64,000 nt of DNA from a virus: the IMG/VR virus record IMGVR_UViG_3300032069_000001, positions 1 to 64,000 of that record, one strand, 5' to 3'. Below are positions 1-43,754 of this stretch, in pieces. A program made the position numbers and the translations under genes. Position 1 is the first letter of the stretch. The number at the start of each line of letters is the position of its first letter. The notes beneath the pieces are model-generated. The model saw nothing but the letters and a program-made list of their open reading frames with translations. It was not told the origin of the DNA and ran no database searches.

Positions 1-242
1 TTCTGCATCAACTCACTAATTTTTTTTCTTGTTTCTGGAGAATTTATATAGCCCAACTGTATCTTTTTATTTATCCTTGCTATTCCTATTTTTTTCTTAT
101 GTTCTTCTTTTTGTGGGTGCTTACTGCCCAAAGCATATTTATTTCCCCTGAACGCCAATCCCTTGCATTTACAATTACAATATTTTTGTCTTGACCTTCT
201 TGTTTTGTATGTCGTGTTGCATTGTAAACAAATCTTTATCAT
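1..242 (-). CDS. HNH/NUMOD-type homing endonuclease, N-terminal part (cut by window edge)
   Basis: The reading frame starts with ATG at 242 and runs off the left edge after 80 codons. The N-terminus has a cysteine cluster (CLQC near residue 5, CNCKC near residue 27) typical of the treble-clef start of phage HNH proteins. The visible end contains a NUMOD3-like segment (SPETRKKISELMQ) that binds DNA in free-standing and intron homing endonucleases. The catalytic HNH part would lie outside the window. The protein resembles the complete HNH gene at 17794-18489 in layout. The family call follows from these motifs; the missing half makes it tentative. Confidence 0.6.
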   Translation of the reverse strand, partial: MIKICLQCNTTYKTRRSRQKYCNCKCKGLAFRGNKYALGSKHPQKEEHKKKIGIARINKKIQLGYINSPETRKKISELMQ

Positions 243-11717: not shown

Positions 11718-13205
11718 TTATAATGTTGCATACTTTTCTTCAATCCAAACGCTTATGTTATCGTTTGCGTTCGGAGCTGAAGCAAAAGTAATCGTAGATG
11801 AACCTGCAAGATGATTAACCACGTAGTCATTACCAGCACCTTCACGAAGCAATGCACCGTTAAGAAAAACCTGTTCGGTAAATGTAAGGTGTGTGTTCGC
11901 AAGGGTGAGAACTTGACCTACACAATCCGAACCGATTTTTTGAACTCTTAAATGATAGTGCAATGCGTTGTTGAATACGGTATGAGTATGTAAACTATCT
12001 GCATTTGAAGATGTACCAGCGGTTAATATTATGATGCTCGCTTCGGTTATTATCGTTATACCAAATGTCATACCCGTTCCTGGAATGGTAAGCATACCCG
12101 CTATACCGACATCACCCGTTGATGCGTCAACCGTAAACATTGTGGTCGCAACTTTGAAGTCATCGGCAACATCAAGGGTTCCACCTATGACCGTATCACC
12201 CGTAGCGGAAGCAACCGTAAACATAGTTGTCGCTACATCAAAATCTCCTGCGACGTGAGTGTCACCAGTTAAAGCAACAACCGTGAACATTGTCGTTGCA
12301 ACCCTAAAGTCACCCGTTGTGTCAAGAGTTCCACCTACAACTGTATTTCCTGTGGCGGAAGCAACCGTGAACATAGTGGTAGCAACATCAAAGTCTCCTA
12401 CGGAACGGAGAGTGCCTCCAACAACTGTATTGCCTGTCGCTGAAGCAACTGTAAACATTGTGGTAGCTACATCAAGGTCGCCTACTACGTGAAGTGTTCC
12501 ACCAACACCTGTATTCCCTGTAGCAGAAGCAACTGTGAACATCGTAGTCGCAACATCAAAATCCCCTACGGAACGGAGAGTGCCCCCAACAACAGTATTG
12601 CCCGTTAAAGCTTCAACGGTAAACATAGTTGTTGCAACCTTGAGGTTATCTCCAACATCAAGAGTTCCAGCCACAACTGTATTACCTGTTAAAGCATCAA
12701 CAGTAAACATTGTGCTATTGACTTTGAAATCGCCCGTAACATCTGCGGTCGTTCCTACGACAAGAGAAGTTCCCGCTTCAAGAGAACCCTGGGACTGCAA
12801 ATTGCCAGTCTCATTGTCTATTTCACACATCACGGAACTGTCGGATACCTTTTGCCATTGGGTAATGACTTTAATAGCCAAACTTCCACCAAAAACAACT
12901 GTAATACCTTTAATGTCGTTTGTATCAGTAACCTCGTTTCCAAGTTTGGTGTTCCCGTTTACGGTCAGGTCATTCGTAATGGTTGCCGACTGATTAACTT
13001 CAATGGTGTTGATTGAAGTAGTCGTGCCTTTTACAGTTAAATCTCCTTCTATAGTCGTTTCTCCGTAAACATGAAGGACTGCATCTTTTGCGTCCAAAGC
13101 ACTCTCATTTAATATCAGTTGACCAGCGTTGCCAACACCGCCCAACCCAAGAGTAAGGGAATTACCTTGTAACTGCGTGTCGGTTCTTATTTTAGTAATA
13201 GCCAT
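11718..13205 (-). CDS. repeat-rich fibre protein
   Basis: 495 codons. Residues ~160-370 consist of eight copies of a unit with the core (D/K)VATTMFTV...TG(N/D)T, mostly 28 residues apart, with connecting G(T/D)L..(V)GDF. This kind of repeat makes triple beta-helical shafts in phage fibres. The C-terminus ends with the shared module (VFLNGALLREGAGNDYVVNH) and VWIEEKYATL. Being the second gene after the capsid gene, it may be a capsid (head) fibre as well as a tail fibre. Copies 3-5 are almost identical at DNA level, so copy-number change by recombination is expected. Confidence 0.65.
   Translation of the reverse strand: MAITKIRTDTQLQGNSLTLGLGGVGNAGQLILNESALDAKDAVLHVYGETTIEGDLTVKGTTTSINTIEVNQSATITNDLTVNGNTKLGNEVTDTNDIKGITVVFGGSLAIKVITQWQKVSDSSVMCEIDNETGNLQSQGSLEAGTSLVVGTTADVTGDFKVNSTMFTVDALTGNTVVAGTLDVGDNLKVATTMFTVEALTGNTVVGGTLRSVGDFDVATTMFTVASATGNTGVGGTLHVVGDLDVATTMFTVASATGNTVVGGTLRSVGDFDVATTMFTVASATGNTVVGGTLDTTGDFRVATTMFTVVALTGDTHVAGDFDVATTMFTVASATGDTVIGGTLDVADDFKVATTMFTVDASTGDVGIAGMLTIPGTGMTFGITIITEASIIILTAGTSSNADSLHTHTVFNNALHYHLRVQKIGSDCVGQVLTLANTHLTFTEQVFLNGALLREGAGNDYVVNHLAGSSTITFASAPNANDNISVWIEEKYATL
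12115..12735 (-). repeat. tandem coding repeats (~84 bp) in fibre shaft
   Basis: About eight in-frame units, each containing the same reverse-complement core for ATTMFTV. Most are spaced 84 bp; one unit (around 12240-12300) is shorter because the GGTL segment is missing. The near identity of the middle units at nucleotide level shows recent duplication. Confidence 0.8.
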
Positions 13206-13803: not shown

Positions 13804-13825
13804 TATAGTTTCTACGCAAACTATA
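13804..13825 (-). terminator. hairpin overlapping the capsid stop codon
   Basis: TATAGTTT (13804-13811) pairs with AAACTATA (13818-13825) across a 6-nt loop, and an AT-rich tract follows on the minus strand. The TAG stop of the capsid gene lies inside the stem. Weak (A:T rich) as a terminator; with the larger hairpin just beyond, the 125-bp gap probably marks a processing or attenuation site. Confidence 0.35.
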
Positions 13826-15245
13826 AGAGGTTCAACGGAACTGCCGAGCTTCCGACGTTGATTACCAAAGCACCTTTCTTCGGAGCGTAAAGGATAGGAA
13901 CTCCGTATAGGAGTATCATAAACCTAATCGCCGCCGAAATGGTTGCTAATGGTAACTTCATTATCGGTGCTAATTGCTTGAACGCCATAACTTGTATGGG
14001 GTTCATATCAAAGAAGAACGCAGGAGACGTTCCCTCAATGATTGACCCGTCGTCATATACCACAAATGTCGGGTCGCCAGGCGTGTATCCGCTGTCGTCA
14101 GCGGGAACAACAGTTTTCAGATAAAGAAACGCACCTGAAGCTGTCTGCCTGTAAATCTTGTAAGCTGTCGGAGCAGGCTGGTCTTGCGTCGGTGTTGCGG
14201 TCGGAATAGTGATGGTCAGAGCCACCCTGTTCGTATCCGCTACTGTCTGCACGATGGAACCGCCGACAGATGCACTTTCGCCGTTTGAGTTGACCGCAGA
14301 AACTTTCCAGTCATACGCACCCGCTTTCAGTTTGTAAGTTGTGCCTGCACCCGCACCCGAGGCAATACCTAACCCCGTAATCGCAGGAGCACCTGTCTGT
14401 CCAGGAGTAATAGGTGCAGAGCCTTCCCTGATGAAAACATCAGGATTGAAAGCATACACACCATTCTGGCTGGAGAAGTGAGTTATCGGAACACCGACAA
14501 CACCTTTTTCAGGAGCAGGTAGCTGAACACGTTCCCTCGGAAAGAAGGTCTTTGCAATGTTCGCTATCGCTTTTGTTGAAAGGAAGCAGTCAGTCACCAT
14601 ACCGTAGTTTATCGCTACGACCTGGCTCGCATTTTCAAGGATACCTTCAGAAATCGGCATACCTTGTGCGTCAATGACGTTTCCGCCATCGGCAAGCATT
14701 TTAGCATAGCCGTCAAACTGTAAGGGAACTTCCCTTGAGCTTCCGAAAAATAACGATTTTTCTATCGCTCTCATAATCCAGAGCGTTCCGTTCCTTGCTT
14801 CCAGGGCAAGAATATCCCCGTGAGCAGAGCGGACAAGAGTTGCTGGGTGCGTTACAACCCTGGTGCTTCCCAGGAATTTGACTAACGCAACCTTTCTTTC
14901 GTATTGTGTATCTTCTTCCCTCGGCAGACCGCCTTCCTGGAAGAACGCCCCGCTGTCAGCACCGTAATCAGTCAACCTGTTGTATTCCTCGGCTGTGCTG
15001 TATGCAGGTATTTTGTTTATCTTCTTCCAGAGTTTTACGTGCTGGTCTTGGAAGGTCAACACTTTCAATGTGCTTTCAAGCGACTGCGGTCTCAATGCAC
15101 CGCCACCAGTTTGAAATGCGACATCGTAGCCTGTTGAAATAGCTTTGTTCAGGTCATCAAGAATTGATGCAGAAGCGAGGTCGCCTCCGCCAAATCCCTG
15201 GAGACCTTCATAGTCGGCTAACGACACCATATTTTCTATTGACAT
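13821..15245 (-). CDS. major capsid protein (HK97-fold, with FN3/Ig-like insertion)
   Basis: 474 codons. Called capsid from its place after protease and scaffold genes, its length, and its make-up: N-terminal region rich in Gly/Ala, then LESTLKVLTFQDQHVKLWKK-type helix and a well-ordered core. Residues ~283-402 look like an inserted fibronectin-III/Ig domain (YDWKVSAVNSNGES, then AYKIYRQ, then FVVYDDGS). The core resumes with FFFDMNPIQVMAFKQLAPIM and ends VGSSAVPLNLL. Ig-like domains in capsid proteins stick out of the shell and often bind host surface sugars. No long N-terminal delta domain is present, in line with a separate scaffold gene. No direct proof of the fold by sequence alone. Confidence 0.75.
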   Translation of the reverse strand: MSIENMVSLADYEGLQGFGGGDLASASILDDLNKAISTGYDVAFQTGGGALRPQSLESTLKVLTFQDQHVKLWKKINKIPAYSTAEEYNRLTDYGADSGAFFQEGGLPREEDTQYERKVALVKFLGSTRVVTHPATLVRSAHGDILALEARNGTLWIMRAIEKSLFFGSSREVPLQFDGYAKMLADGGNVIDAQGMPISEGILENASQVVAINYGMVTDCFLSTKAIANIAKTFFPRERVQLPAPEKGVVGVPITHFSSQNGVYAFNPDVFIREGSAPITPGQTGAPAITGLGIASGAGAGTTYKLKAGAYDWKVSAVNSNGESASVGGSIVQTVADTNRVALTITIPTATPTQDQPAPTAYKIYRQTASGAFLYLKTVVPADDSGYTPGDPTFVVYDDGSIIEGTSPAFFFDMNPIQVMAFKQLAPIMKLPLATISAAIRFMILLYGVPILYAPKKGALVINVGSSAVPLNLL

Positions 15246-15287: not shown

Positions 15288-16115
15288 TTATTCTCCGTAA
15301 ATCAAACCTTCCAGAGATTTATCAAGGACGCCAGTAACTTCAAATTTTGAAGTTGCCCCTACTGGAGCTTTGCCTGACACCTCAAGATTTGCAAGTTTGT
15401 CAGCGATTTGAGCTTTTGACAGTTCCTTGCCTTTATCTCCTTCGTTGCCTCTGAAGGATTTTTCTATTGACCTTCCGCTCTTTGATTTTGAAGGCATCGG
15501 TGCTTCACCGAATTCTTCAATGCTGTCGCCGAGGCTCTTAATGAAATCGTTCTGTGCTTCCTGCGATTTCAAAAATGCCTTTTTGAATTTCACATTGGAT
15601 TTCTCCAGGCTTTCAACTTTTGCGGAAAGAGTGTCAATGCTCTCGCTTAAGCTCTTTACGAGACTTGCCAAGAATTCCGAAACCTCAAGAGCATTTTTCA
15701 TCTGCTCGTTTGACTTTACGGTCTCGCTGAAGCTTTTCTTGGTTTCTTTCTTTTTTGCTTCTTCTTCGTCATCGTCGTCATCATCTTCTTCTTTCTTTCC
15801 TTTGGCTTCTTCGTCATCATCATCATCTTCCTTTTTACCTTTTGCTTCCTCGTCATCGTCCTCGTCTTCCTTTTTGCCTTTGGCTTCTTCGTCATCTTCT
15901 TCTTTCTTGCCTTTGGCTTCCTCGTCATCGTCCTCGTCTTCCTTCTTTCCCTTCGCTTCCTCGTCCTCTTTACATTCTTCCTCTTTCTTCGCCTTTTCAA
16001 CGTCATCAGAAGCAGTCACTTCTTCGTCGTTAATGGACTTTTCCAAATCCTCAACCGCCTGGTCAAGGGATTTTTCAACTTCTTCCTTGTTTTTGGTTTC
16101 CTTGCTCATATTCAT
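15288..16115 (-). CDS. acidic repeat protein, probable capsid scaffold
   Basis: 275 codons. Residues ~35-125 are extremely acidic with about five copies of (E/D)EEAKGKKE(E/D)D. The region ~125-185 is helical with coiled-coil spacing (EVSEFLASLVKSLSESIDTL). The C-terminus (SKAQIADKLANLEVSGKAPVG) is basic to neutral. Location between protease and capsid genes and the helical/acidic make-up fit a scaffolding protein that the protease later removes. Its start overlaps the protease stop by 4 bp (ATGA), a sign of coupled translation. The opposite strand is open by chance because of the repeats. Confidence 0.65.
   Translation of the reverse strand: MNMSKETKNKEEVEKSLDQAVEDLEKSINDEEVTASDDVEKAKKEEECKEDEEAKGKKEDEDDDEEAKGKKEEDDEEAKGKKEDEDDDEEAKGKKEDDDDDEEAKGKKEEDDDDDDEEEAKKKETKKSFSETVKSNEQMKNALEVSEFLASLVKSLSESIDTLSAKVESLEKSNVKFKKAFLKSQEAQNDFIKSLGDSIEEFGEAPMPSKSKSGRSIEKSFRGNEGDKGKELSKAQIADKLANLEVSGKAPVGATSKFEVTGVLDKSLEGLIYGE
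15743..15990 (-). repeat. acidic tandem repeats in scaffold gene
   Basis: Imperfect in-frame repeats of a ~39-bp unit coding for EEAKGKKEDEDDD-type text. The unit varies in length by whole codons (DD, DDDD, DDDDD), a pattern expected from slippage or unequal exchange. Confidence 0.75.
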
Positions 16116-16972: not shown

Positions 16973-17167
16973 TTACAGGTCAATATTTTCAGTCGTGATA
17001 GGAATAGATACCACGCCTGCGTTTGCTACAGCATCGTTCAAAGATGCTTTCATCAGATTGCACATATCTTGCAACTTTTTCATCTCAATCTTTATAGCAT
17101 TGAGATTGGGGTCAGCATCAAAGTTGACCTCGTGTTTCAATCCAACTTTTTCGTCTATTGTCGGCAT
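16973..17167 (-). CDS. small helical protein before the protease
   Basis: 64 codons, AAAGGAGGG before the ATG. One amphipathic helix (NAIKIEMKKLQDMCNLMKAS) is obvious; no motif. It is the first gene after the terminator at 17199-17246, so its expression depends on read-through or on the promoter at 17317-17345. Confidence 0.55.
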   Translation of the reverse strand: MPTIDEKVGLKHEVNFDADPNLNAIKIEMKKLQDMCNLMKASLNDAVANAGVVSIPITTENIDL

Positions 17168-17198: not shown

Positions 17199-17246
17199 TT
17201 AAAACAAAAAGGCTAAAAGACATTTTTAATTTGTCCTTTAGCCTTT
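17199..17246 (-). terminator. strong intrinsic terminator
   Basis: AAAGGCTAAAAGACA (17208-17222) pairs with TGTCCTTTAGCCTTT (17232-17246) with a single mismatch over 15 bp. On the minus strand the stem is followed by TTTTTGTTTT (17201-17210). This is a good rho-independent terminator. It sits downstream of a consensus promoter and upstream of the protease/scaffold/capsid genes. Confidence 0.8.
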
Positions 17247-17310
17247 GAATTCGCTCTTTGACCTTACACGACTGGTCGGAGAATACTCCCCTACTACTCC
17301 CAGATTATTT
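17200..17310 (-). ncRNA. putative ~110-nt small RNA or attenuated leader
   Basis: Bounded by the perfect sigma70 promoter (17317-17345) and the intrinsic terminator (17199-17246). No start codon with a usable ORF lies inside. The RNA would hold two small hairpins (GGAG/CTCC and GACC/GGTC in the first 60 nt) before the terminator stem. Either a discrete phage sRNA is made here, or the terminator is an attenuator for the late capsid operon. Prediction from sequence only. Confidence 0.55.
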
Positions 17311-17316
17311 TAATAG

Positions 17317-17345
17317 ATTATAACATAATATCTCCTATTTGTCAA
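17317..17345 (-). promoter_or_regulatory. perfect-consensus sigma70 promoter, leftward
   Basis: On the minus strand TTGACA (17340-17345) is followed by a 17-bp spacer and TATAAT (17317-17322). Start of transcription is expected near 17310. The -35 box overlaps the stop region of the small zinc-ribbon gene at 17335-17562. Both hexamers are exact and the spacing is optimal, which is rarely seen by chance. Confidence 0.85.
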
Positions 17346-17562
17346 GTGTATTCTTAATAATTGCGGTTGAATTCGCACTATTATTAAGAATGACGTGCGA
17401 CGTCAACTGAAAATGAAGTTCTTCTATTTTGTTTTCTGCTTTACAATGTGGACAAACAGCATATACGCCATCTGACTTCGCCAATATAATACGGTTCTTA
17501 ATCGCAATCTCTCCGTTAGAACGCTCTTGAACTATTTTCTGTCCACAGGAACATTGCCTCAT
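17335..17562 (-). CDS. small zinc-ribbon protein
   Basis: 75 codons. Cysteine pairs CSCG (residues 4-7) and CPHC (~37-40) make a compact zinc ribbon, comparable in build to Mu Com-like small regulators, though I would not assign that function. The C-terminal 25 residues contain an inverted-repeat DNA segment (TTCTTAATAAT ... ATTATTAAGAA, ~17350-17391). Its start overlaps the stop of the gene upstream. Confidence 0.55.
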   Translation of the reverse strand: MRQCSCGQKIVQERSNGEIAIKNRIILAKSDGVYAVCPHCKAENKIEELHFQLTSHVILNNSANSTAIIKNTLDK

Positions 17563-17801
17563 TACTTCTTCTCCACCTGTCTATCCGATAGACGAATAAA
17601 ATGGGATAGAGATTTCTTTATTTTCTTAATTTTCCTAATTTTATCCCCCACATTATATTCAACGCCCAATTCATCTTTCATTCCAACCAGGGCACGCCGA
17701 GCTTGGATACGGTCAATTTCGTGTGGTAAATGCTCTATTTGGCGATGAATTGACCTAATATAATGCTTCATTCTGGTATCTCTGGTAGTTGCCTCACCCA
17801 T
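17562..17801 (-). CDS. small basic helical protein, unknown
   Basis: 79 codons from ATG at 17801 with GGAGG upstream (MGEATTRDTRMKHYIRSIHR); a longer in-frame start at 17864 would overlap the HNH gene fully and has no good ribosome site. It is basic and helical (IDRIQARRALVGMKDELG). Near its 3' end lies the GTCTATC-C-GATAGAC palindrome shared with the promoter region at 43.4 kb. Confidence 0.5.
   Translation of the reverse strand: MGEATTRDTRMKHYIRSIHRQIEHLPHEIDRIQARRALVGMKDELGVEYNVGDKIRKIKKIKKSLSHFIRLSDRQVEKK
17579..17593. promoter_or_regulatory. 15-bp palindrome, copy 2 of a possible operator
   Basis: GTCTATC-C-GATAGAC is a perfect 7+7 inverted repeat around one base. The identical 15-mer occurs at 43396-43410, 19-33 bases downstream of a promoter start. 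Here it is inside a coding region, ~235 bp upstream of the promoter at 17317-17345. Two exact copies near strong promoters suggest a binding site for a dimeric regulator. Confidence 0.45.
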
Positions 17802-19561: not shown

Positions 19562-22500
19562 TTATACCCCCGCCTTTAGGGTTTCTTCCTGTGCTGGACG
19601 GTAAGCCAAACCTCTCCTATCCAGTATGTTTACTATCATCTGCTTTTTAACTCCGTCCACAATTTTTAAATTAAGCATATTTAGAAGGTCTGTAGTCGTA
19701 ATATGCTTGCTCAACTTATCCATTACTTTTTGCTGTTCCGTGAAATCTTTGGCATTACCCCAATCCTTCCTGAATTCCCTTCTTATTGCATCTCCATTAT
19801 CAAGCCTTCTCCAATATCTATTAGCAGGGTCAACATCTTGTTTATGGTAATATTCTTTTAATTCTTTGCCTACATTTCCAGCGTGTAAATTTAGGAAATT
19901 ATCAATTTGATGATTTGTCATAATATCTATCATTCTGGCTCCCTCGTTAATTCTTATATCCCTGTCGCTTACCCTCATAAAGTCATCAAGCTGATGTTGC
20001 TGGAACGGGTTCAAAAACTTTCTATGCTCTTTATCCATCTCGTCAAATTTCAATTTCTTCGCCATCATCATTGCACCTATGGCTCCCTTATGCAGTCCGA
20101 GGTCAAAGAACCTGTTGACCTGGCGATAATCAAGGGCATTAACAAAATCTTCTCTCGCTTTCCATTGTTCGTGAAGTTTAAATTTTGAGTTGACAACTGC
20201 TTCTTTGAATTTGTCAAACTTTTTAGATTGGTTATCATCAAGCAAACGTTTAAGTTTTTCAACCTTCTCATCAAAACCCAGTTTCTTATATCTCGGGTTC
20301 ATCTTTATCTGCTTTGCGTGTATTTCAAGTTGTTTTAAATCAAGGTCTTGTGCTTTAATGTGCATAGGGTCAGAAGGAGTAATTATTTTCATTGCTCCGC
20401 CTTCGCCAGCAAGGTCTTTCATAAACTTCCTTTCTCTCACTCTTTGCTTTTTCTCCCCTTCTTTTTCTATTGCTTTTACTTTTGCCCTCTCCTCATCTTT
20501 ATATTTTTTGTAATACATATTATCTATTTGTTCTATGCGGGTTCCACTCGGTATTTTACCATCATTTAACATTGTGGCTATTCTATTCTCCATCATTTCA
20601 GCCTGCAATGTAAGCATATCCTTGTCGGAGTGCATACCAGAATTCATAATCATATCTTTTACTTTATCAAAATTCTGTGCGAGTTTTTCAAGCCTCTCCA
20701 TATCTTCATTGTCTAATCTATCTAAACTGTGAGAATAAGCGTAGTCTAATGACCTTGTATTCATATAATAGGCTTTAGCTCCAAGCAATCCATTATCTAT
20801 AGCAAAAATATTTCCATTTCGTTTATCCATCATAATATTACCGCCGTGCCTGTCTGCATTACCCAATATGGCGTCTAAAAGAGCGAGATTGTGCATTTGC
20901 TTATTTCTATTGAGTTGACCTTTTTCACCCATTAAACCGCCCATATCATAATCTTGTTTATTTGCTCCCAAATCAAGAAAATGCTGGAGAGAAGCCATAC
21001 CGCCCTCTTTCAATCCTTTGTGTTTGTCTGCCACCTCTTTCGTAACTGGAACAAGTATTGTCGGGGGAACCAAGTCGCTACCAAAAAGCTTTGAAAGTTC
21101 GTATGCAAAAACTTCCCTAAATCCCTGCGTCCCACTCGGTATGTTGTGAAAAATCATTCCCCCTTTGTGACTTTCTCCATCAAGAGGTTTAAGAACACCC
21201 CAACCGTCGCCATCAATCTTTACTTTGGCAACGAGGTTAATGCCCTCTCTCCCGCCTTCATCTTTCATTAAACCAACATATTTATATTTTCCGTCCTTCG
21301 CTGGGCTCATCATCTTTTCAATATCGTTTCTTTTGGTATGATGATGTTCAGGGTCAATATGAACTTCGCCAGGCATTATGGTTCTTGTCGGGTCAAGTTG
21401 CGGAGCCATACCCTTGCCCACTCCAGCAGGTTCAGAAACTTTTCTTTGAGCTTCAGCCATCTTCCCTAATTTTTCCACTAAATTAGTAGCTTCTGGTTTT
21501 TCCTGTTCTTTAGCCTGTCCATATTGGTAATAATCACTTCGCCCAGCTTTCTTTCTTTCGTGTTCTCTCCATTTTTTCCATTTCTCAACGTGGTCTAAAT
21601 CAGCAACACCATTTTTCTCAAACTCTGCCCAGACTTCATCTTTTAGTCTTAATTCAGCCTGATTATGTCCATATACAGGAAGAACATTTTTCATTGCTTC
21701 AAGCCCGCCAGGTGTAGATATTGCGTGTATCATACCATTTGTTTTATCGGCATAAAAATATATATCGCCAAATGGAGTTTTATTGCTTCTTAAGAAAAGA
21801 AGATTTCCAGCTTTTGCTTCTTCATTAAGAGCGTGTATCTCATATTTTTTGACAACATCACTTTCAAGCTTACCAGCTTCTTTGTGCTTTGCCCAAACAT
21901 CATCTTGTAAATGCCTGTGCTCTTTTTCGTGCCCAGCTCCGCCAAATAACGGTTTATGCTTTCCTTCATCGTGCAACGGCTTATCGCTTGTGTAAAGATT
22001 TCCCTGCGGGTCACGATAATAATAAACATAACTGCCAGGTTGTCCTTCTCTGCGAATATATTTATGTCCTGGTCTCATCTGTCCTTTTAACTTTGAAGGT
22101 TGTCTTGTTCCAGGAAGTATGGGTGTTTTCTGGGGAGCAGAACCACCAAGTTTCGGCGTAGGTATTGGTATTTCTCCCGCTTTAATTAAATCTTCAATAA
22201 TGGATTTTGCTAAACCTTTATTTACGTGTTCAACAAATTCCACCAAATTCTTTATTTTGGCTTTCTTTAATGCTACAACGTTATTATAAACAGCATTTAA
22301 CATTGCGTCTGTCTGGTATTCTTTACCAAGCATATTGCCCTTATATTCAACGTGCCCACCACCGCCTTTCTTACCGACCAACTTTATGTCATCAGCTCCA
22401 GCTTCCTCTGCCTGCGTTAAAACCTGATTTATATTTTTTAACACTTCACGTTTGCCGATAGCGTGTTTTAAATCTTCTTCATTCTTAATCTTGCCTTCAA

Positions 22501-25500
22501 AATACTGGTCAGCAAAATTTTTTCTTTGGGCTTTATCATCAACGGCTACTTCCTTCCCTTTTGGTGCTGGTTTCTTGGCTTCCACTTTCTTTATTCCAGC
22601 TTCTTTCATTCCAGGAACTCCACCCTCTTTGATTGCCTGAAATACGTCAGCACCCGCACCCTTAAGACCCTTCATTCCTTTTGGGGCTTCTGGCATTTTT
22701 TCTTCTGCAACTTTTTCTGGTATCTTTTCTTTGGGTGTTTCAACTTTAGCTTCGCCTTCGTGTGCGTGCTCATATAATTCTTTAAGTCCGTATTCAGGCA
22801 GGGCTACTTCACCGTGTCTGTGTATTAAAGCAACCATATTTTCAGGACTGTCTTCCTGTGCAAAAGAATAACCAGCAAATCCTTTATCCTTGTGCACATT
22901 CTTAATCATATCCTCAATATGCCAACCTGCGTGCTCTTTATCAAATCCTCCAGTTCTTAAATGTCCATATGGATTTATTCTTAAACCTTTATAATTTTCA
23001 TAATCATAATAATTTTGGTTCTTTGCGTGCTCATTAAATTCCTTAATAAGTTTCTTGTGTTCTTCGTTCCTCGTATCAAATATATTCTTTGGATTAAGAT
23101 AAACTGCCTGGTCGTGCTTACTAATCTTCTTTGTGGTCAAAAATTCTGTCTTGTTCGTAGGTTCGTGAGCAAACGCCCTGTCCATTCCCCTATTAGTATC
23201 TCTATAGAAAATATTCTTTTCATTCGCCTTTTTAAAGCTCTCATAATCTTTATGCTTCTTTGCTTCCTCCACCAAACTCTTGAATTGTTTTTTGTATCCG
23301 CTTACCCTCTCGTCTCTCCCTTCCTTAAGAGCCTTATCAACTTTTTCCTTACCGTAAATATCATTCATTCTGGCTATCTGGTTTTTCTGTTGTTCTTCGT
23401 CGTAATGATGATGTAAGTCATAAGCCTTGCCTTCAATCCCTCCAATGTGCATCATAGCTTCACCTATTTCAGTTGAACCTATTTTCTTGGCTTTATTCAA
23501 ATCCCTTATCTTTTCGGCAAGTTCCAAAACCCTTTTTACTCTACCTATTTTCTCGGCATTATAAAGTTGTGCTTTTTCTCCATATTTTTCTTCCTCACCA
23601 GGAAGATTAAACATATTTTTATCTAAAGCGGATTTAAGCAAGCCTTTGCCGTCTTCATCAAAATTATCCTCAACCTTTTGCTGAACATCTTTAGCAAGAT
23701 TATAAGCATCTTCCTTTATCCCAAGATGTTTGTGTTTTTCAATCCCGAGTTCTTTTAATCTTTCATATATTTCAAATCCAGGAACATAAGTTTTTCCCTT
23801 GTCTCTTATCAGTTTCTCCACCAGCATTTTGCCTCTAACAGCATCAGCACCCATTCTAATATCTTCGTGCTTCATTCTTTCTATCTGGAAAGCTTCAGCC
23901 AAATGATGGGTTTTTATTATTTTTGATTTATCTTCTCCTGCAATCTTCTCTGCGAATTCTTTAAGGACTTCATCTTTTACCTTTCGCCCTGGGTGAAGTT
24001 CTGCATCATCTATTTTTTTCTTCCAAGCATCGTATAAAGTTTTAGCATCTTCCTCCACCTTCATACCGCCGACTTCAACTGGTTCTTTAACTTCAGCTTT
24101 CTTTTCTATTTGTTTTACGGGTAGGGGTATTTCTTTTACTTTTTTTGCTGGTTTCTTTTCTTCTGCTTTCGGTATTTTAACTTTAGGTTTTTCCGCTGGC
24201 TTCGGAACTTCAACTTTTGGTTCTTCTACTTTTTTCTCTCCAATTATTTCGCCTTCAGGAGTAACCTGAACATTCCCTTTATCATAAACGTAAATCTTGC
24301 CTCCAATCTCCTTAAGGGCTCTTTTCCATACGTCATCTGGTATCCCGTGCGGATTTGCCCCTTCAAGACCTGCCATACGCTTTATTTCGTGTTCGTGCAG
24401 AGGATTATTCTCAAGAACATACTTTGCATAATCAAGTTGTTCCTGCTCGTTCATTCCTTTTTTCTTTTCTTCTGCTTTCGGTTCTTCCTCTTTCGGTGCT
24501 TCAATTTTAGCTTCTTCGGCTGGTGTTCCCGCTCCTGCTTTTGCTTCTGGTGCTTGACCCGCCTGCTCTTTTAATTTTTGCCATAGTTCATAAGCAGTAG
24601 CTTCTTTAAGACCTGCTTTATCAAGTAAAGTTTTTAAACCAATCTTATTCTCTCTGCCAAATTTGTCTATCCACCCTCTCGCTTCTTCTTTTGTATTAAA
24701 ATATTCCCCCATCTTTGGCTTTCCAATATTTATCATATTGTTGCCAATTTTTCTAATTGCAAAACCCTTTTTAGTTCTAACAATATGCCAGCTTTGAGAC
24801 TTAATCATAAAATCAACAAAATCTTTCTGTTCAACAGCGTGTTTTTGAACTTGTTGAGTATATTCCCCAAACTTGTCGGCTGGTTTCTCCTCTGCCTTTG
24901 GCTCCTCTACCTTTGGAGCTTCTCCTGGTTTAGGTTCCTCTGCTTTTGGTTCTTCAGCTTTAGGTTCAGGAACAGGTGCTTTAAGATTTGCCTCGTCCCA
25001 GCCCTCTACCCAAGCTTTCATATTAGCAATATTCACTCCAGGTTCTCCGTGTTCAAGCCTATCCATCAATTCTTTATTTTGTGCTGGAGCTCTTATTTTT
25101 CCATACTTAAATGCTTCCTTACCCATTTCTTTAGCTTCTTTTGGAGTTAATGGTTTAACTACTGGTTTTTCTTCAGCTTTCGGTTCTTCTTTGGGTTCTT
25201 CTTTCGGTTTTTCTTCTGCCTTTGGTTCTTCGGCTTTTGGTTCTTCTTTCAGTTCTTCCTCAACTGGTTTCTTTAATTTTTCTGGCGTATAATAAACATC
25301 AGAAGGCATTTCAACAGTTTCTTCTTTCTTTGGTTCATCTTTTTGAACATCAGACGGAGTTGATGGTTCCTCTCTTTGTATCTGTTGCTCTGATGGTTCA
25401 TCAGCCACTTCAACAGGGCTCTCTGGCGGTTTCTCTGCCATCAATTCATTAAGCCTTTTGCCTTCTTCAATTATCTGTTTATGTTGAATATGAGCTTCGT

Positions 25501-26884
25501 GATGATGACGAATATACTCATTATCCCAATCAAACTTTCCTGGAAGAATTCCCTGATGCTTCATATCCCGCAACATAAAGTCTTTGAATGAATTATATCC
25601 AAGATTATCAAGATTATTTATCCACATCTTTTGCTGATTAAAGTCTTGAATATTTTCCTGTATCAAAGTAATCTTCTCGTCCCTGCTCATATTATTAAAT
25701 TTATCAATAATGAATTGTTCGTTATCCCACTCTGGCGGATTATGAAGCGGTATATTGCTTTCATAATTCTGATTAAGTTCATCTGCATAAATATAAATAT
25801 AATTACCAGGTGTTCCTTTTCTTTCAATGTATTTGTGCCCAGGTTTCATTCTTCCTACACGTGGGTCAATGCCTCCTGTTGTTGGCGGGGGAACTTTGGC
25901 AGACGGCAAACTTACTCCTGGAGCCACTATCGGTTTATCTATGGGAGCAGAGCCTTCACCTGGCAATGCTTTAATGAGTTCTTCTTTATCCAAAATATTC
26001 TTTTTAATAAAATCAAGCTTCTTTCTTCCTGTTACTCCGTGAAACCTTCCAATCAATCCAGTCACAGCAAAACTAAAGCTTTCCGTGAAATCTTCCTTCG
26101 GATTTCTTGTGGCATACCACCTAACAAAATTAGCATCTTCTTTAAACGCCCAGTTTGATTTTAGTTTCGGTGCACCTTCTTCTCTAATAATAAGTCTTTT
26201 ATAGCCCTTCGGCGTTTCATTATCGCCTATGAACTTCCAACCGCTTATACTTATCCACTCTTTCTTATCGCTAAAACCGTTTTTGTCATCAATAGCGTGA
26301 GCAATTTCGTGAATAACAACCTGCGTAACTTTTGATATACTGTGTCCTTCACCGTCTTCATATCTTGTTTTAAGGTTAAATATATCGGGGTTAAGCATTA
26401 TCTTTTTTTCTTCTTCAATATATTTACCGTGATTTGGATAAAGACGCTTGCTCTTACCCATTCTTTCATCAAGAATAACTCTTTCCACCTTGCCTTTTAA
26501 AAAGTTTTTTGGTATATCTTCCAAAGCTTCATAAAGTTTTTTTGCTGTTTCTTTATCAAAATTATCCGACAATTCAATACCGTGCTCTTTTTTGAATGTC
26601 TCACGAAAATCATCAGCAAAAGATTTATTTATTTTTTCAGTCTTTTTAAGGCTGGGCAGGTCAAGGGCATCAAAAATCTTTTCTTCAATCTTATCCAATA
26701 CGTCAGCAATAAGATTGTCAACCAGTTCCTCTGCGTCAGCTATGGGTTCAATGCTATGCGGTTCCCATAATTTGCTTTCGCTGTCATATTCCTTCGGTTT
26801 GGTTGCTTTTTCTATTTCCTGACTTACTGGAGAGACTATATCTGCTTTATAATTATTATTGAGCTTGAGTATCAGCTTTGTCAT
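19562..26884 (-). CDS. 2440-residue polyvalent virion protein: metalloprotease, repeat linkers, C-terminal PI3/4K/HipA-like kinase
   Basis: One uninterrupted frame of 2440 codons between portal and minor head genes. Visible parts: (a) a zincin domain, residues ~90-310, with H192-E-I-A-H196 and a candidate third ligand E268 in NPKEDFTESF; (b) a motif M346-KPGHKYIERKGTPGNYIYIY, repeated at M1603-RPGHKYIRREGQPGSYVYYY, each preceded by a GSAP...Pro-rich linker; (c) long Lys/Glu/Pro linkers (KAEEPK repeats, ~520-920); (d) a central segment ~1235-1335 (AVYLNPKNIFDTR ... GYSFAQEDSPENMVALI) that recalls toxin-like domains of polyvalent proteins, possibly ADP-ribosyltransferase-like, uncertain; (e) a kinase domain ~1840-2110 with candidate Lys1899 (GVLKPL), REVFAYELSKLFG, LVPPT, D2011-RHGGN2016 and IDNG with D2030, which is the PI3/4-kinase/HipA-like catalytic pattern; (f) helical C-terminus. 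Giant multi-enzyme proteins in this place are usually packaged with the DNA and injected. Injection is inferred; the motifs are read directly. Confidence 0.8.
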   Translation of the reverse strand: MTKLILKLNNNYKADIVSPVSQEIEKATKPKEYDSESKLWEPHSIEPIADAEELVDNLIADVLDKIEEKIFDALDLPSLKKTEKINKSFADDFRETFKKEHGIELSDNFDKETAKKLYEALEDIPKNFLKGKVERVILDERMGKSKRLYPNHGKYIEEEKKIMLNPDIFNLKTRYEDGEGHSISKVTQVVIHEIAHAIDDKNGFSDKKEWISISGWKFIGDNETPKGYKRLIIREEGAPKLKSNWAFKEDANFVRWYATRNPKEDFTESFSFAVTGLIGRFHGVTGRKKLDFIKKNILDKEELIKALPGEGSAPIDKPIVAPGVSLPSAKVPPPTTGGIDPRVGRMKPGHKYIERKGTPGNYIYIYADELNQNYESNIPLHNPPEWDNEQFIIDKFNNMSRDEKITLIQENIQDFNQQKMWINNLDNLGYNSFKDFMLRDMKHQGILPGKFDWDNEYIRHHHEAHIQHKQIIEEGKRLNELMAEKPPESPVEVADEPSEQQIQREEPSTPSDVQKDEPKKEETVEMPSDVYYTPEKLKKPVEEELKEEPKAEEPKAEEKPKEEPKEEPKAEEKPVVKPLTPKEAKEMGKEAFKYGKIRAPAQNKELMDRLEHGEPGVNIANMKAWVEGWDEANLKAPVPEPKAEEPKAEEPKPGEAPKVEEPKAEEKPADKFGEYTQQVQKHAVEQKDFVDFMIKSQSWHIVRTKKGFAIRKIGNNMINIGKPKMGEYFNTKEEARGWIDKFGRENKIGLKTLLDKAGLKEATAYELWQKLKEQAGQAPEAKAGAGTPAEEAKIEAPKEEEPKAEEKKKGMNEQEQLDYAKYVLENNPLHEHEIKRMAGLEGANPHGIPDDVWKRALKEIGGKIYVYDKGNVQVTPEGEIIGEKKVEEPKVEVPKPAEKPKVKIPKAEEKKPAKKVKEIPLPVKQIEKKAEVKEPVEVGGMKVEEDAKTLYDAWKKKIDDAELHPGRKVKDEVLKEFAEKIAGEDKSKIIKTHHLAEAFQIERMKHEDIRMGADAVRGKMLVEKLIRDKGKTYVPGFEIYERLKELGIEKHKHLGIKEDAYNLAKDVQQKVEDNFDEDGKGLLKSALDKNMFNLPGEEEKYGEKAQLYNAEKIGRVKRVLELAEKIRDLNKAKKIGSTEIGEAMMHIGGIEGKAYDLHHHYDEEQQKNQIARMNDIYGKEKVDKALKEGRDERVSGYKKQFKSLVEEAKKHKDYESFKKANEKNIFYRDTNRGMDRAFAHEPTNKTEFLTTKKISKHDQAVYLNPKNIFDTRNEEHKKLIKEFNEHAKNQNYYDYENYKGLRINPYGHLRTGGFDKEHAGWHIEDMIKNVHKDKGFAGYSFAQEDSPENMVALIHRHGEVALPEYGLKELYEHAHEGEAKVETPKEKIPEKVAEEKMPEAPKGMKGLKGAGADVFQAIKEGGVPGMKEAGIKKVEAKKPAPKGKEVAVDDKAQRKNFADQYFEGKIKNEEDLKHAIGKREVLKNINQVLTQAEEAGADDIKLVGKKGGGGHVEYKGNMLGKEYQTDAMLNAVYNNVVALKKAKIKNLVEFVEHVNKGLAKSIIEDLIKAGEIPIPTPKLGGSAPQKTPILPGTRQPSKLKGQMRPGHKYIRREGQPGSYVYYYRDPQGNLYTSDKPLHDEGKHKPLFGGAGHEKEHRHLQDDVWAKHKEAGKLESDVVKKYEIHALNEEAKAGNLLFLRSNKTPFGDIYFYADKTNGMIHAISTPGGLEAMKNVLPVYGHNQAELRLKDEVWAEFEKNGVADLDHVEKWKKWREHERKKAGRSDYYQYGQAKEQEKPEATNLVEKLGKMAEAQRKVSEPAGVGKGMAPQLDPTRTIMPGEVHIDPEHHHTKRNDIEKMMSPAKDGKYKYVGLMKDEGGREGINLVAKVKIDGDGWGVLKPLDGESHKGGMIFHNIPSGTQGFREVFAYELSKLFGSDLVPPTILVPVTKEVADKHKGLKEGGMASLQHFLDLGANKQDYDMGGLMGEKGQLNRNKQMHNLALLDAILGNADRHGGNIMMDKRNGNIFAIDNGLLGAKAYYMNTRSLDYAYSHSLDRLDNEDMERLEKLAQNFDKVKDMIMNSGMHSDKDMLTLQAEMMENRIATMLNDGKIPSGTRIEQIDNMYYKKYKDEERAKVKAIEKEGEKKQRVRERKFMKDLAGEGGAMKIITPSDPMHIKAQDLDLKQLEIHAKQIKMNPRYKKLGFDEKVEKLKRLLDDNQSKKFDKFKEAVVNSKFKLHEQWKAREDFVNALDYRQVNRFFDLGLHKGAIGAMMMAKKLKFDEMDKEHRKFLNPFQQHQLDDFMRVSDRDIRINEGARMIDIMTNHQIDNFLNLHAGNVGKELKEYYHKQDVDPANRYWRRLDNGDAIRREFRKDWGNAKDFTEQQKVMDKLSKHITTTDLLNMLNLKIVDGVKKQMIVNILDRRGLAYRPAQEETLKAGV

Positions 26885-43391: not shown

Positions 43392-43414
43392 GCTTGTCTA
43401 TCCGATAGACAAGC
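43392..43414. promoter_or_regulatory. 23-bp perfect palindrome downstream of the leftward promoter
   Basis: GCTTGTCTATC-C-GATAGACAAGC, 11+11 bp around one base. It lies at about +15 to +37 of the transcript from the promoter at 43436-43464. Its 15-bp core also occurs at 17579-17593. Either an operator for a dimeric repressor or a hairpin in the 5' leader; its exact symmetry and the second copy favour a protein site. Confidence 0.6.
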
Positions 43415-43435: not shown

Positions 43436-43464
43436 ATTATACAGTATTTAATTGAGCTTGTCAA
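43436..43464 (-). promoter_or_regulatory. perfect-consensus sigma70 promoter for the leftward block
   Basis: Minus strand TTGACA (43459-43464), 17-bp spacer, TATAAT (43436-43441). Transcript start is expected near 43429, giving a ~140-nt leader before the HTH gene at 43286. The leader holds the palindrome at 43392-43414. Both boxes are exact. Confidence 0.85.
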
Positions 43465-43726
43465 TAGTAAAACGCTTTATTTTATCTTATCTTATAAGAG
43501 ATAATACGCCTGCTACCGTATAGCATTTAAGCAAGCGAAAACCCTTATAGTATATAGCGTTTTAAGCATATTCTTAATAGTTATTATTCTTAATTACTAA
43601 TAACTAATAAGCTATATAAATTAAGACGTTTTAAGCATATTAAGAATAAGCTATATACTATATAGCATATTACATTTTTAGCATATTAAGAAAATAAATT
43701 TATTTTTGAAAAAATACGATTTACTA
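43465..43726. other. AT-rich divergent spacer with iteron-like repeats, origin or control-region candidate
   Basis: No ORF. CGTTTTAAGCATATT occurs at 43558-43572 and 43627-43641, a third partial copy (TTTTTAGCATATTAAGAA) at 43675-43692, plus repeated AAGCTATATA and TATATAGC words and TTAAGAATA elements. A TTATCT...AGATAA inverted repeat is near 43483-43505. It separates two divergent sigma70 promoters. Direct repeats in an AT-rich spacer are typical of replication origins and of multi-site operators. Confidence 0.5.
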
Positions 43727-43754
43727 TTGACAATTAGGAAATAAGTGTTATAAT
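43727..43754 (+). promoter_or_regulatory. consensus sigma70 promoter for the rightward block
   Basis: TTGACA (43727-43732), 16-bp spacer, TATAAT (43749-43754). Start is expected near 43761, about 20 bases before the leader ORF at 43780. Confidence 0.8.

What the first reader, a model, noticed from the sequence alone, without database searches (positions are those of the whole stretch)
17199..17345. Consensus promoter fires into a strong terminator: small RNA or attenuator ahead of the capsid operon
TTGACA-17-TATAAT at 17317-17345 and a 15-bp stem with U-run at 17199-17246 enclose ~110 nt with no ORF. A perfect promoter kept by a phage only to make 110 nt points to a regulatory RNA, a decoy, or controlled read-through into protease, scaffold and capsid genes.
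Basis: partly seen in the sequence, partly recalled or inferred. Interest (0 to 1): 0.65.

Follow-up and report, generated by a model that had tools for sequence, protein, structure and literature searches.

The report
Terminated leader ahead of phage capsid genes
A probably temperate phage starts transcription from a perfect promoter just before its capsid genes and runs at once into a strong stop signal; distant relatives keep this promoter-then-stop order although their sequences are completely different, which suggests a conserved on/off gate for capsid production that also makes a ~110-nt RNA.

Summary
On the minus strand, TTGACA-17-TATAAT with an extended -10 (17345-17317) is followed by a perfect 15-bp stem with a U-rich tail (17246-17208 + TTGTTTT). 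It is one of four perfect promoters in the 97,213-bp virus record (shuffles: 0.05) and ahead of its best clean intrinsic terminator.

Order and position recur in relatives without DNA similarity. L016 (capsid protein 73% identical) has TTGACA-17-TAAAAT, then a GC-rich terminator. L023 and L026 (37-39%) have TTGACG-18-TAGCGT, the only such site in 17 kb, then a 14-bp GC-rich terminator. All four lie between a small four-cysteine protein gene and the protease/scaffold/capsid genes. Only 21-41 nt separate the hairpin from the next start codon, so the capsid genes must be read through it. SPO1-like relatives mostly lack the block or place terminator before promoter.

Best explanation: a conditional-termination leader working like lambda pR'-tR' or alpB-tB, releasing a ~110-nt RNA when closed. 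No transcript was measured and no antiterminator identified; the zinc-ribbon protein is a candidate only. A separate trans-acting sRNA or a leaky dosage terminator remains possible.

The parts
17317..17345 (-). promoter P17345: TTGACA-17-TATAAT with TG extended -10; overlaps the 3' end of the zinc-ribbon gene
17311..17333 (-). AGATATTATGTTATAATCTATTA block shared (1 mismatch in 23) with promoter P72285 of a ribbon-helix-helix-like gene; possible shared operator
17200..17310 (-). predicted terminated transcript of about 110 nt (start and end inferred, not measured)
17247..17310 (-). leader 5' part: small alternative hairpins, no stable fold (z -0.4), no ORF
17208..17246 (-). intrinsic terminator hairpin: 15 pairs, 9-nt loop, dG -18.6
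17201..17207 (-). rest of the U-tract of the terminator (TTGTTTT)
16973..17167 (-). 64-aa ORF, first gene after the terminator (SD AAAGGAGGG); positional counterpart in L016 is 73 aa
16112..16963 (-). head maturation protease
   Evidence: phrog_1028, 3.6e-20
15288..16115 (-). scaffold protein with acidic repeats
13821..15245 (-). major capsid protein (SPO1-like, phrog_752)
17335..17562 (-). 75-aa four-cysteine zinc-ribbon-like protein directly upstream of the promoter; counterparts in L016, L023, L026 at the same place; weak resemblance to phage Mu Com
43436..43464 (-). P43464, perfect promoter of the upstream packaging/portal gene cluster that also points at the terminator

Best explanation
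The block is a conditional-termination leader that gates the capsid (protease-scaffold-major capsid) genes. Host RNA polymerase starts at P17345 and by default stops ~110 nt later at the hairpin, releasing a short RNA. When the capsid genes are needed, polymerase from P17345, and from the upstream packaging operon, is allowed past the hairpin by a factor or modification not yet identified. It works like lambda pR'-tR' with Q, or alpB-tB with AlpA. Shown: sequence elements, their non-randomness, conserved order and place in four phage genomes, lack of room for a later promoter. Inferred: start and end of the RNA, termination in vivo, regulated read-through, identity of the regulator.
For: Perfect extended -10 promoter and best clean terminator of the record in the right order. 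Same order at the same gene junction in L016 without DNA similarity: TTGACA-17-TAAAAT (11/12, TG, the best promoter match in 16 kb), terminator TGGGCTACGGTGAAAATCACCGAGCCCA + TTTTTATTT, -10-to-hairpin-end distance within about 5 nt of the window's. In L023, and in L026 (same DNA as L025): TTGACG-18-TAGCGT, the only TTGAC-17..19-TAnnnT in either 17-kb locus, then GAGGGCGC..GCGCCCTT + TTTGCGTTT; between L023 and L026 the -35, the -10 and the terminator core are kept while the spacer varies. Hairpin to next start codon: window 41 nt, L016 25 nt, L023 21 nt, so downstream genes need read-through. The phage carries an integrase and a recombination-directionality-like gene, so an off state for capsid genes makes sense. 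The promoter resembles early-class extended -10 promoters mapped in a SPO1-like Listeria phage (PMC12282133), whereas the genes behind the hairpin are structural.
Against: No RNA data; the phage and its host are uncultured or unknown. No Q-, N- or NusG-like gene was recognised among the proteins scanned. No conserved antiterminator hairpin: competing pairings exist in L023/L026 and weakly in L016, not in the window. Terminators at the portal-protease junction also occur in relatives without a promoter in front (L008, L011, PHB04, ST4), so this one could be a leftover operon end that is merely leaky. The four genomes are not fully independent observations (tree).
Confidence: 0.55

Rival explanations
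1. A dosage element without regulator: an internal promoter plus a partly leaky terminator set a fixed ratio of capsid-operon mRNA to upstream packaging mRNA. The short RNA is waste.
For: Terminators between late genes are common in SPO1-like phages. No antiterminator gene recognised. The window hairpin stem is A+T-rich, so it may leak.
Against: Capsid protein is needed in large amounts, so a very strong promoter followed by the strongest terminator is an odd way to raise output; the hairpins in L016, L023 and L026 are GC-rich and look efficient.
Confidence: 0.2
2. A dedicated trans-acting small RNA gene. The ~90-115-nt RNA is the product and acts on phage or host mRNAs, with read-through into the capsid genes a side effect, as described for StxS and IsrK.
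For: Own promoter and terminator, no ORF, similar length in L016, and folded 5' hairpins in L016 and L023. Precedents StxS (PMC12101431) and IsrK (PMC4825925).
Against: Leader sequence is not conserved between window and L016; window 5' part has no stable structure (z -0.4); best predicted pairing with phage start regions is reached by 7% of shuffled leaders. Position fixed ahead of the capsid genes argues for a cis role.
Confidence: 0.17
3. The hairpin is a 5'-end stabiliser or RNase processing site of the capsid mRNA, not a terminator.
For: It stands right before the ribosome-binding site of the first gene in window, L016, L023 and L026.
Against: All four hairpins are followed directly by a U-rich tract (TTGTTTT, TTTTTATTT, TTTGCGTTT), the hallmark of intrinsic terminators.
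Confidence: 0.05
4. Chance coincidence of a promoter-like and a terminator-like sequence.
For: Consensus matches alone are not evidence of function; 13-bp stems with T-tracts average 0.88 per shuffled genome.
Against: Perfect extended -10 promoters: 0 in 40 shuffles; same arrangement at the same junction in L016, L023 and L026.
Confidence: 0.03

Closest known systems
Lambdoid late promoter pR' - terminator tR' with antiterminator Q (lambda, 21, 82)
   Same: Strong sigma70 promoter fires into an intrinsic terminator upstream of structural genes; short RNA when terminated; promoter lies just downstream of a small regulatory-candidate gene
   Different: No Q homologue recognised; here the gate sits inside the structural cluster, before protease-scaffold-capsid, not before the whole late operon; phage is of the SPO1-like capsid lineage
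AlpA - alpB promoter - tB (Pseudomonas aeruginosa; PMC7969949, PMC9371919)
   Same: Promoter, intrinsic terminator 54 nt after the start, then the operon; opened by a small protein that binds within the promoter
   Different: No AlpA homologue recognised; function of downstream genes differs
StxS and IsrK, prophage small RNAs made by termination ahead of an operon (PMC12101431; PMC4825925)
   Same: Short RNA from a promoter-terminator block with read-through into downstream phage genes
   Different: Those RNAs have shown targets; none is shown here and the leader sequence is not conserved
SPO1-like (Herelleviridae) portal-protease junction
   Same: Same neighbourhood; several members have a terminator there (L008, L011, L031, L037)
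   Different: Where promoter-like sequences are seen there (L031, L037) they follow the terminator, the usual order; here the promoter precedes it
Phage Mu Com - mom
   Same: A small four-cysteine zinc-ribbon gene lies directly upstream of the controlled gene; profile comparison of the zinc-ribbon group with Com: probability 86%, pairwise E 5e-6
   Different: Com acts on translation of mom; membership rests on ~28 aligned columns around the cysteines, PHROG 'translational regulator' hits of E 0.0017-0.008 in three of four, none in the window protein; not filed as a Com

Membership tests
pR'-tR'-Q type late gate | Strong sigma70 promoter upstream of late/structural genes | tested here: met
pR'-tR'-Q type late gate | Intrinsic terminator between promoter and operon, with no other promoter after it | tested here: met
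   Hairpin and U-tract, 21-41 nt to the next start codon in window, L016, L023; by sequence only
pR'-tR'-Q type late gate | Q-family antiterminator gene | tested here: not met
   None among the proteins scanned with Pfam and PHROGs; not every small ORF was scanned
pR'-tR'-Q type late gate | -10-like pause element in the initially transcribed region | tested here: inconclusive
   By eye: TAAAAT just after the -10 in window (17312-17307) and at L016 5662-5667, none in L023/L026; could be chance in A+T-rich DNA
pR'-tR'-Q type late gate | Regulated read-through in vivo | not testable with these tools
   needs RNA data
Riboswitch / classical attenuator | Conserved antiterminator hairpin exclusive with the terminator, or known aptamer | tested here: not met
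   No Rfam hit; competing pairing in L023/L026 only, weak in L016, absent in window
Leader-peptide attenuator | Short ORF with a start codon in the leader | tested here: not met
   No usual start codon opening an ORF in the leader
Known phage small-RNA families in Rfam | Match above gathering score | tested here: not met
Com family (zinc-ribbon gene upstream) | Significant match to a Com model over the whole domain | tested here: inconclusive
   PHROG 6417 E 0.0017-0.0078 in three of four, no hit for the window protein, no Pfam Com hit; hhalign probability 86% over 28 columns

The most novel reading that the evidence does not exclude
A new antitermination or RNA-switch system of SPO1-like-capsid phages: the small Com-like zinc-ribbon protein encoded immediately upstream binds the nascent leader RNA or the promoter complex and opens the terminator, so that a zinc-ribbon protein times capsid synthesis.
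Probability: 0.12. Interest if true: 0.75.

Novelty: new variant of a known kind. Interest (0 to 1): 0.5.

Why it matters
If true, conditional termination of the lambda pR'-tR' kind has a counterpart in a phage lineage with SPO1-like capsids, placed inside the structural cluster and conserved as an arrangement while its sequence turns over completely. It would give a simple promoter-hairpin block to test, a candidate regulator next door, and a method hint: gates of this kind can be found by order and position where sequence similarity fails.

Tried and rejected
Rfam search of window and relatives: nothing. Search for the 64-aa downstream protein in phages: nothing. Searches of bacterial genome contigs with protease and capsid queries: no relative. 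Relative G001 (L003, capsid 76%) starts inside the protease gene, so it cannot test the block. Zinc-ribbon gene as a known Pfam family: none above cut-off; AlphaFold model poor, pLDDT 55, so no fold search. sRNA target scan inside the phage: not significant. Antiterminator hairpin as a general feature: rejected. Pseudomonas phages Dolphis/Jeremy first looked like further cases (TTGCGA-18-CATAAT before a terminator), but ST4 has the terminator directly behind the upstream stop codon and no promoter, and members of that group share a GTCGTGAC-like element after the terminator; not counted. SPO1-like contigs L045-L052, L054: no promoter-terminator block at the protease junction. Paper searches for an annotated case in SPO1-like phages found none in the open library.

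Full report
What was checked. The window is bases 1-64000 of a 97,213-bp virus record, which also carries a tyrosine integrase and a recombination-directionality-like gene, so it is probably temperate. On the minus strand the promoter TTGACA-17-TATAAT with an extended -10 lies at 17345-17317, and the hairpin 17246-17208 with a U-rich tail lies about 70 nt further on. Four perfect promoters occur in the record against 0.05 expected from shuffles, three of them extended against none. The hairpin is the only uninterrupted stem of 13 or more pairs with a T-rich tail in the record.

Place in the genome. Minus-strand order: terminase small subunit behind P43464, terminase large subunit, portal, a 2440-aa protein, a 253-aa protein with a distant counterpart in L016, an HNH gene, a 100-aa gene, a four-cysteine zinc-ribbon gene, then the block, then a 64-aa ORF, head maturation protease, scaffold, major capsid protein. 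The capsid protein is of the SPO1 kind, 40% identical to SPO1 relatives. Transcripts from P43464 would meet the same hairpin.

Relatives. L016 (IMG/VR 3300031772_000168; capsid protein 73%) has the same genes in the same order: zinc-ribbon gene, TTGACA-17-TAAAAT with TG, a leader, a GC-rich hairpin with TTTTTATTT, a 73-aa ORF, protease, scaffold, capsid. DNA comparison finds no similarity at the block, and from -10 to hairpin end is 114 nt against 109 nt in the window. L023 and L026 (L025 carries the same DNA as L026; capsid protein 37-39%, high G+C) have a zinc-ribbon gene whose end overlaps TTGACG-18-TAGCGT, then a hairpin of 14 pairs with TTTGCGTTT, then the protease 20 nt later. TTGAC-17..19-TAnnnT occurs once in each 17-kb locus, exactly there. 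Between L023 and L026 the -35, the -10 and the terminator core are kept while the spacer varies.

Contrast. In SPO1-like phages the same junction has no promoter-terminator block (L045-L052, L054), a terminator only, or a terminator followed by promoter-like sequences (L031, L037). Listeria phage CKA15 work describes early promoters of the TTGACTT / ATGxTATACT type and late ones of the TGCTATATTA type (PMC12282133); P17345 resembles the early type. The capsid tree puts window, L003 and L016 in one clade and L023, L026 in another together with L027 and L024, where L027 lacks the block, so the arrangement was either inherited and lost in some lines or gained twice.

How it most likely works. Because 21-41 nt separate the hairpin from the next start codon in window, L016 and L023, no second promoter fits, and the capsid genes must be transcribed through the hairpin. 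A strong promoter followed at once by a strong terminator before structural genes is the arrangement of lambda pR'-tR' (PMC6606751; PMC12101431) and of alpB-tB (PMC7969949, PMC9371919). The best explanation is therefore conditional termination, with a ~110-nt RNA as the product when the gate is shut. What opens it is unknown. Two candidates: the zinc-ribbon protein encoded immediately upstream, which weakly resembles Mu Com, and the ribbon-helix-helix-like protein whose own promoter P72285 shares 22 of 23 bases with P17345 across the -10. The second would act on initiation, not on termination. Both are inference.

What is not supported. A known RNA family, a leader peptide and a general antiterminator hairpin were tested and not found. 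A trans role of the RNA has no positive evidence here, though the host genome is unknown, so host targets could not be tested.

Limits. All statements on transcription rest on sequence. Four genomes carry the block, two of them close to each other.

Noticed in passing
window 17311-17333 and record 72251-72273 (minus): The capsid promoter and P72285 share AGATATT[A/G]TGTTATAATCTATTA with one mismatch; the next best site in the record has six. P72285 drives a 61-aa ribbon-helix-helix-like protein whose homologue in G001 also sits behind a perfect extended -10 promoter. Possible shared operator.
   Followed up: partly
window 17579-17593 and 43396-43410: The palindrome GTCTATCSGATAGAC occurs twice in the window (expected 0.01): once in the leader behind promoter P43464 and once about 230 bp upstream of P17345; not seen in the rest of the record. 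Possible common regulatory site of both operons.
   Followed up: partly
window 43436-43754: Two perfect promoters point away from each other (43464 minus, 43727 plus) across an A+T-rich stretch with repeated TATGCTTAAAACG-like words; could be the main control region.
   Followed up: no
L003 1565-3674: The capsid gene of relative G001 is split by an insert holding a 190-aa ORF that looks like a LAGLIDADG-type homing endonuclease by eye; HNH genes lie nearby.
   Followed up: no
window 19562-26884: A 2440-aa protein with long acidic/proline-rich linkers encoded between portal and capsid genes.
   Followed up: no
window 12278-12689 and 15772-15987: In-frame tandem repeats: 84-bp units in a putative tail/fibre gene and acidic 39-bp units in the scaffold gene.
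   Followed up: no
L030, L039, L064, L065 upstream of the protease gene: Pseudomonas/Aeromonas phages of the Dolphis group share a terminator and then a conserved GTCGTGACGGCA element just before the protease start.
   Followed up: partly
record 76064-77041 (minus): A spermidine-synthase-like gene behind the strong promoter P77041, upstream of the integrase gene.
   Followed up: no
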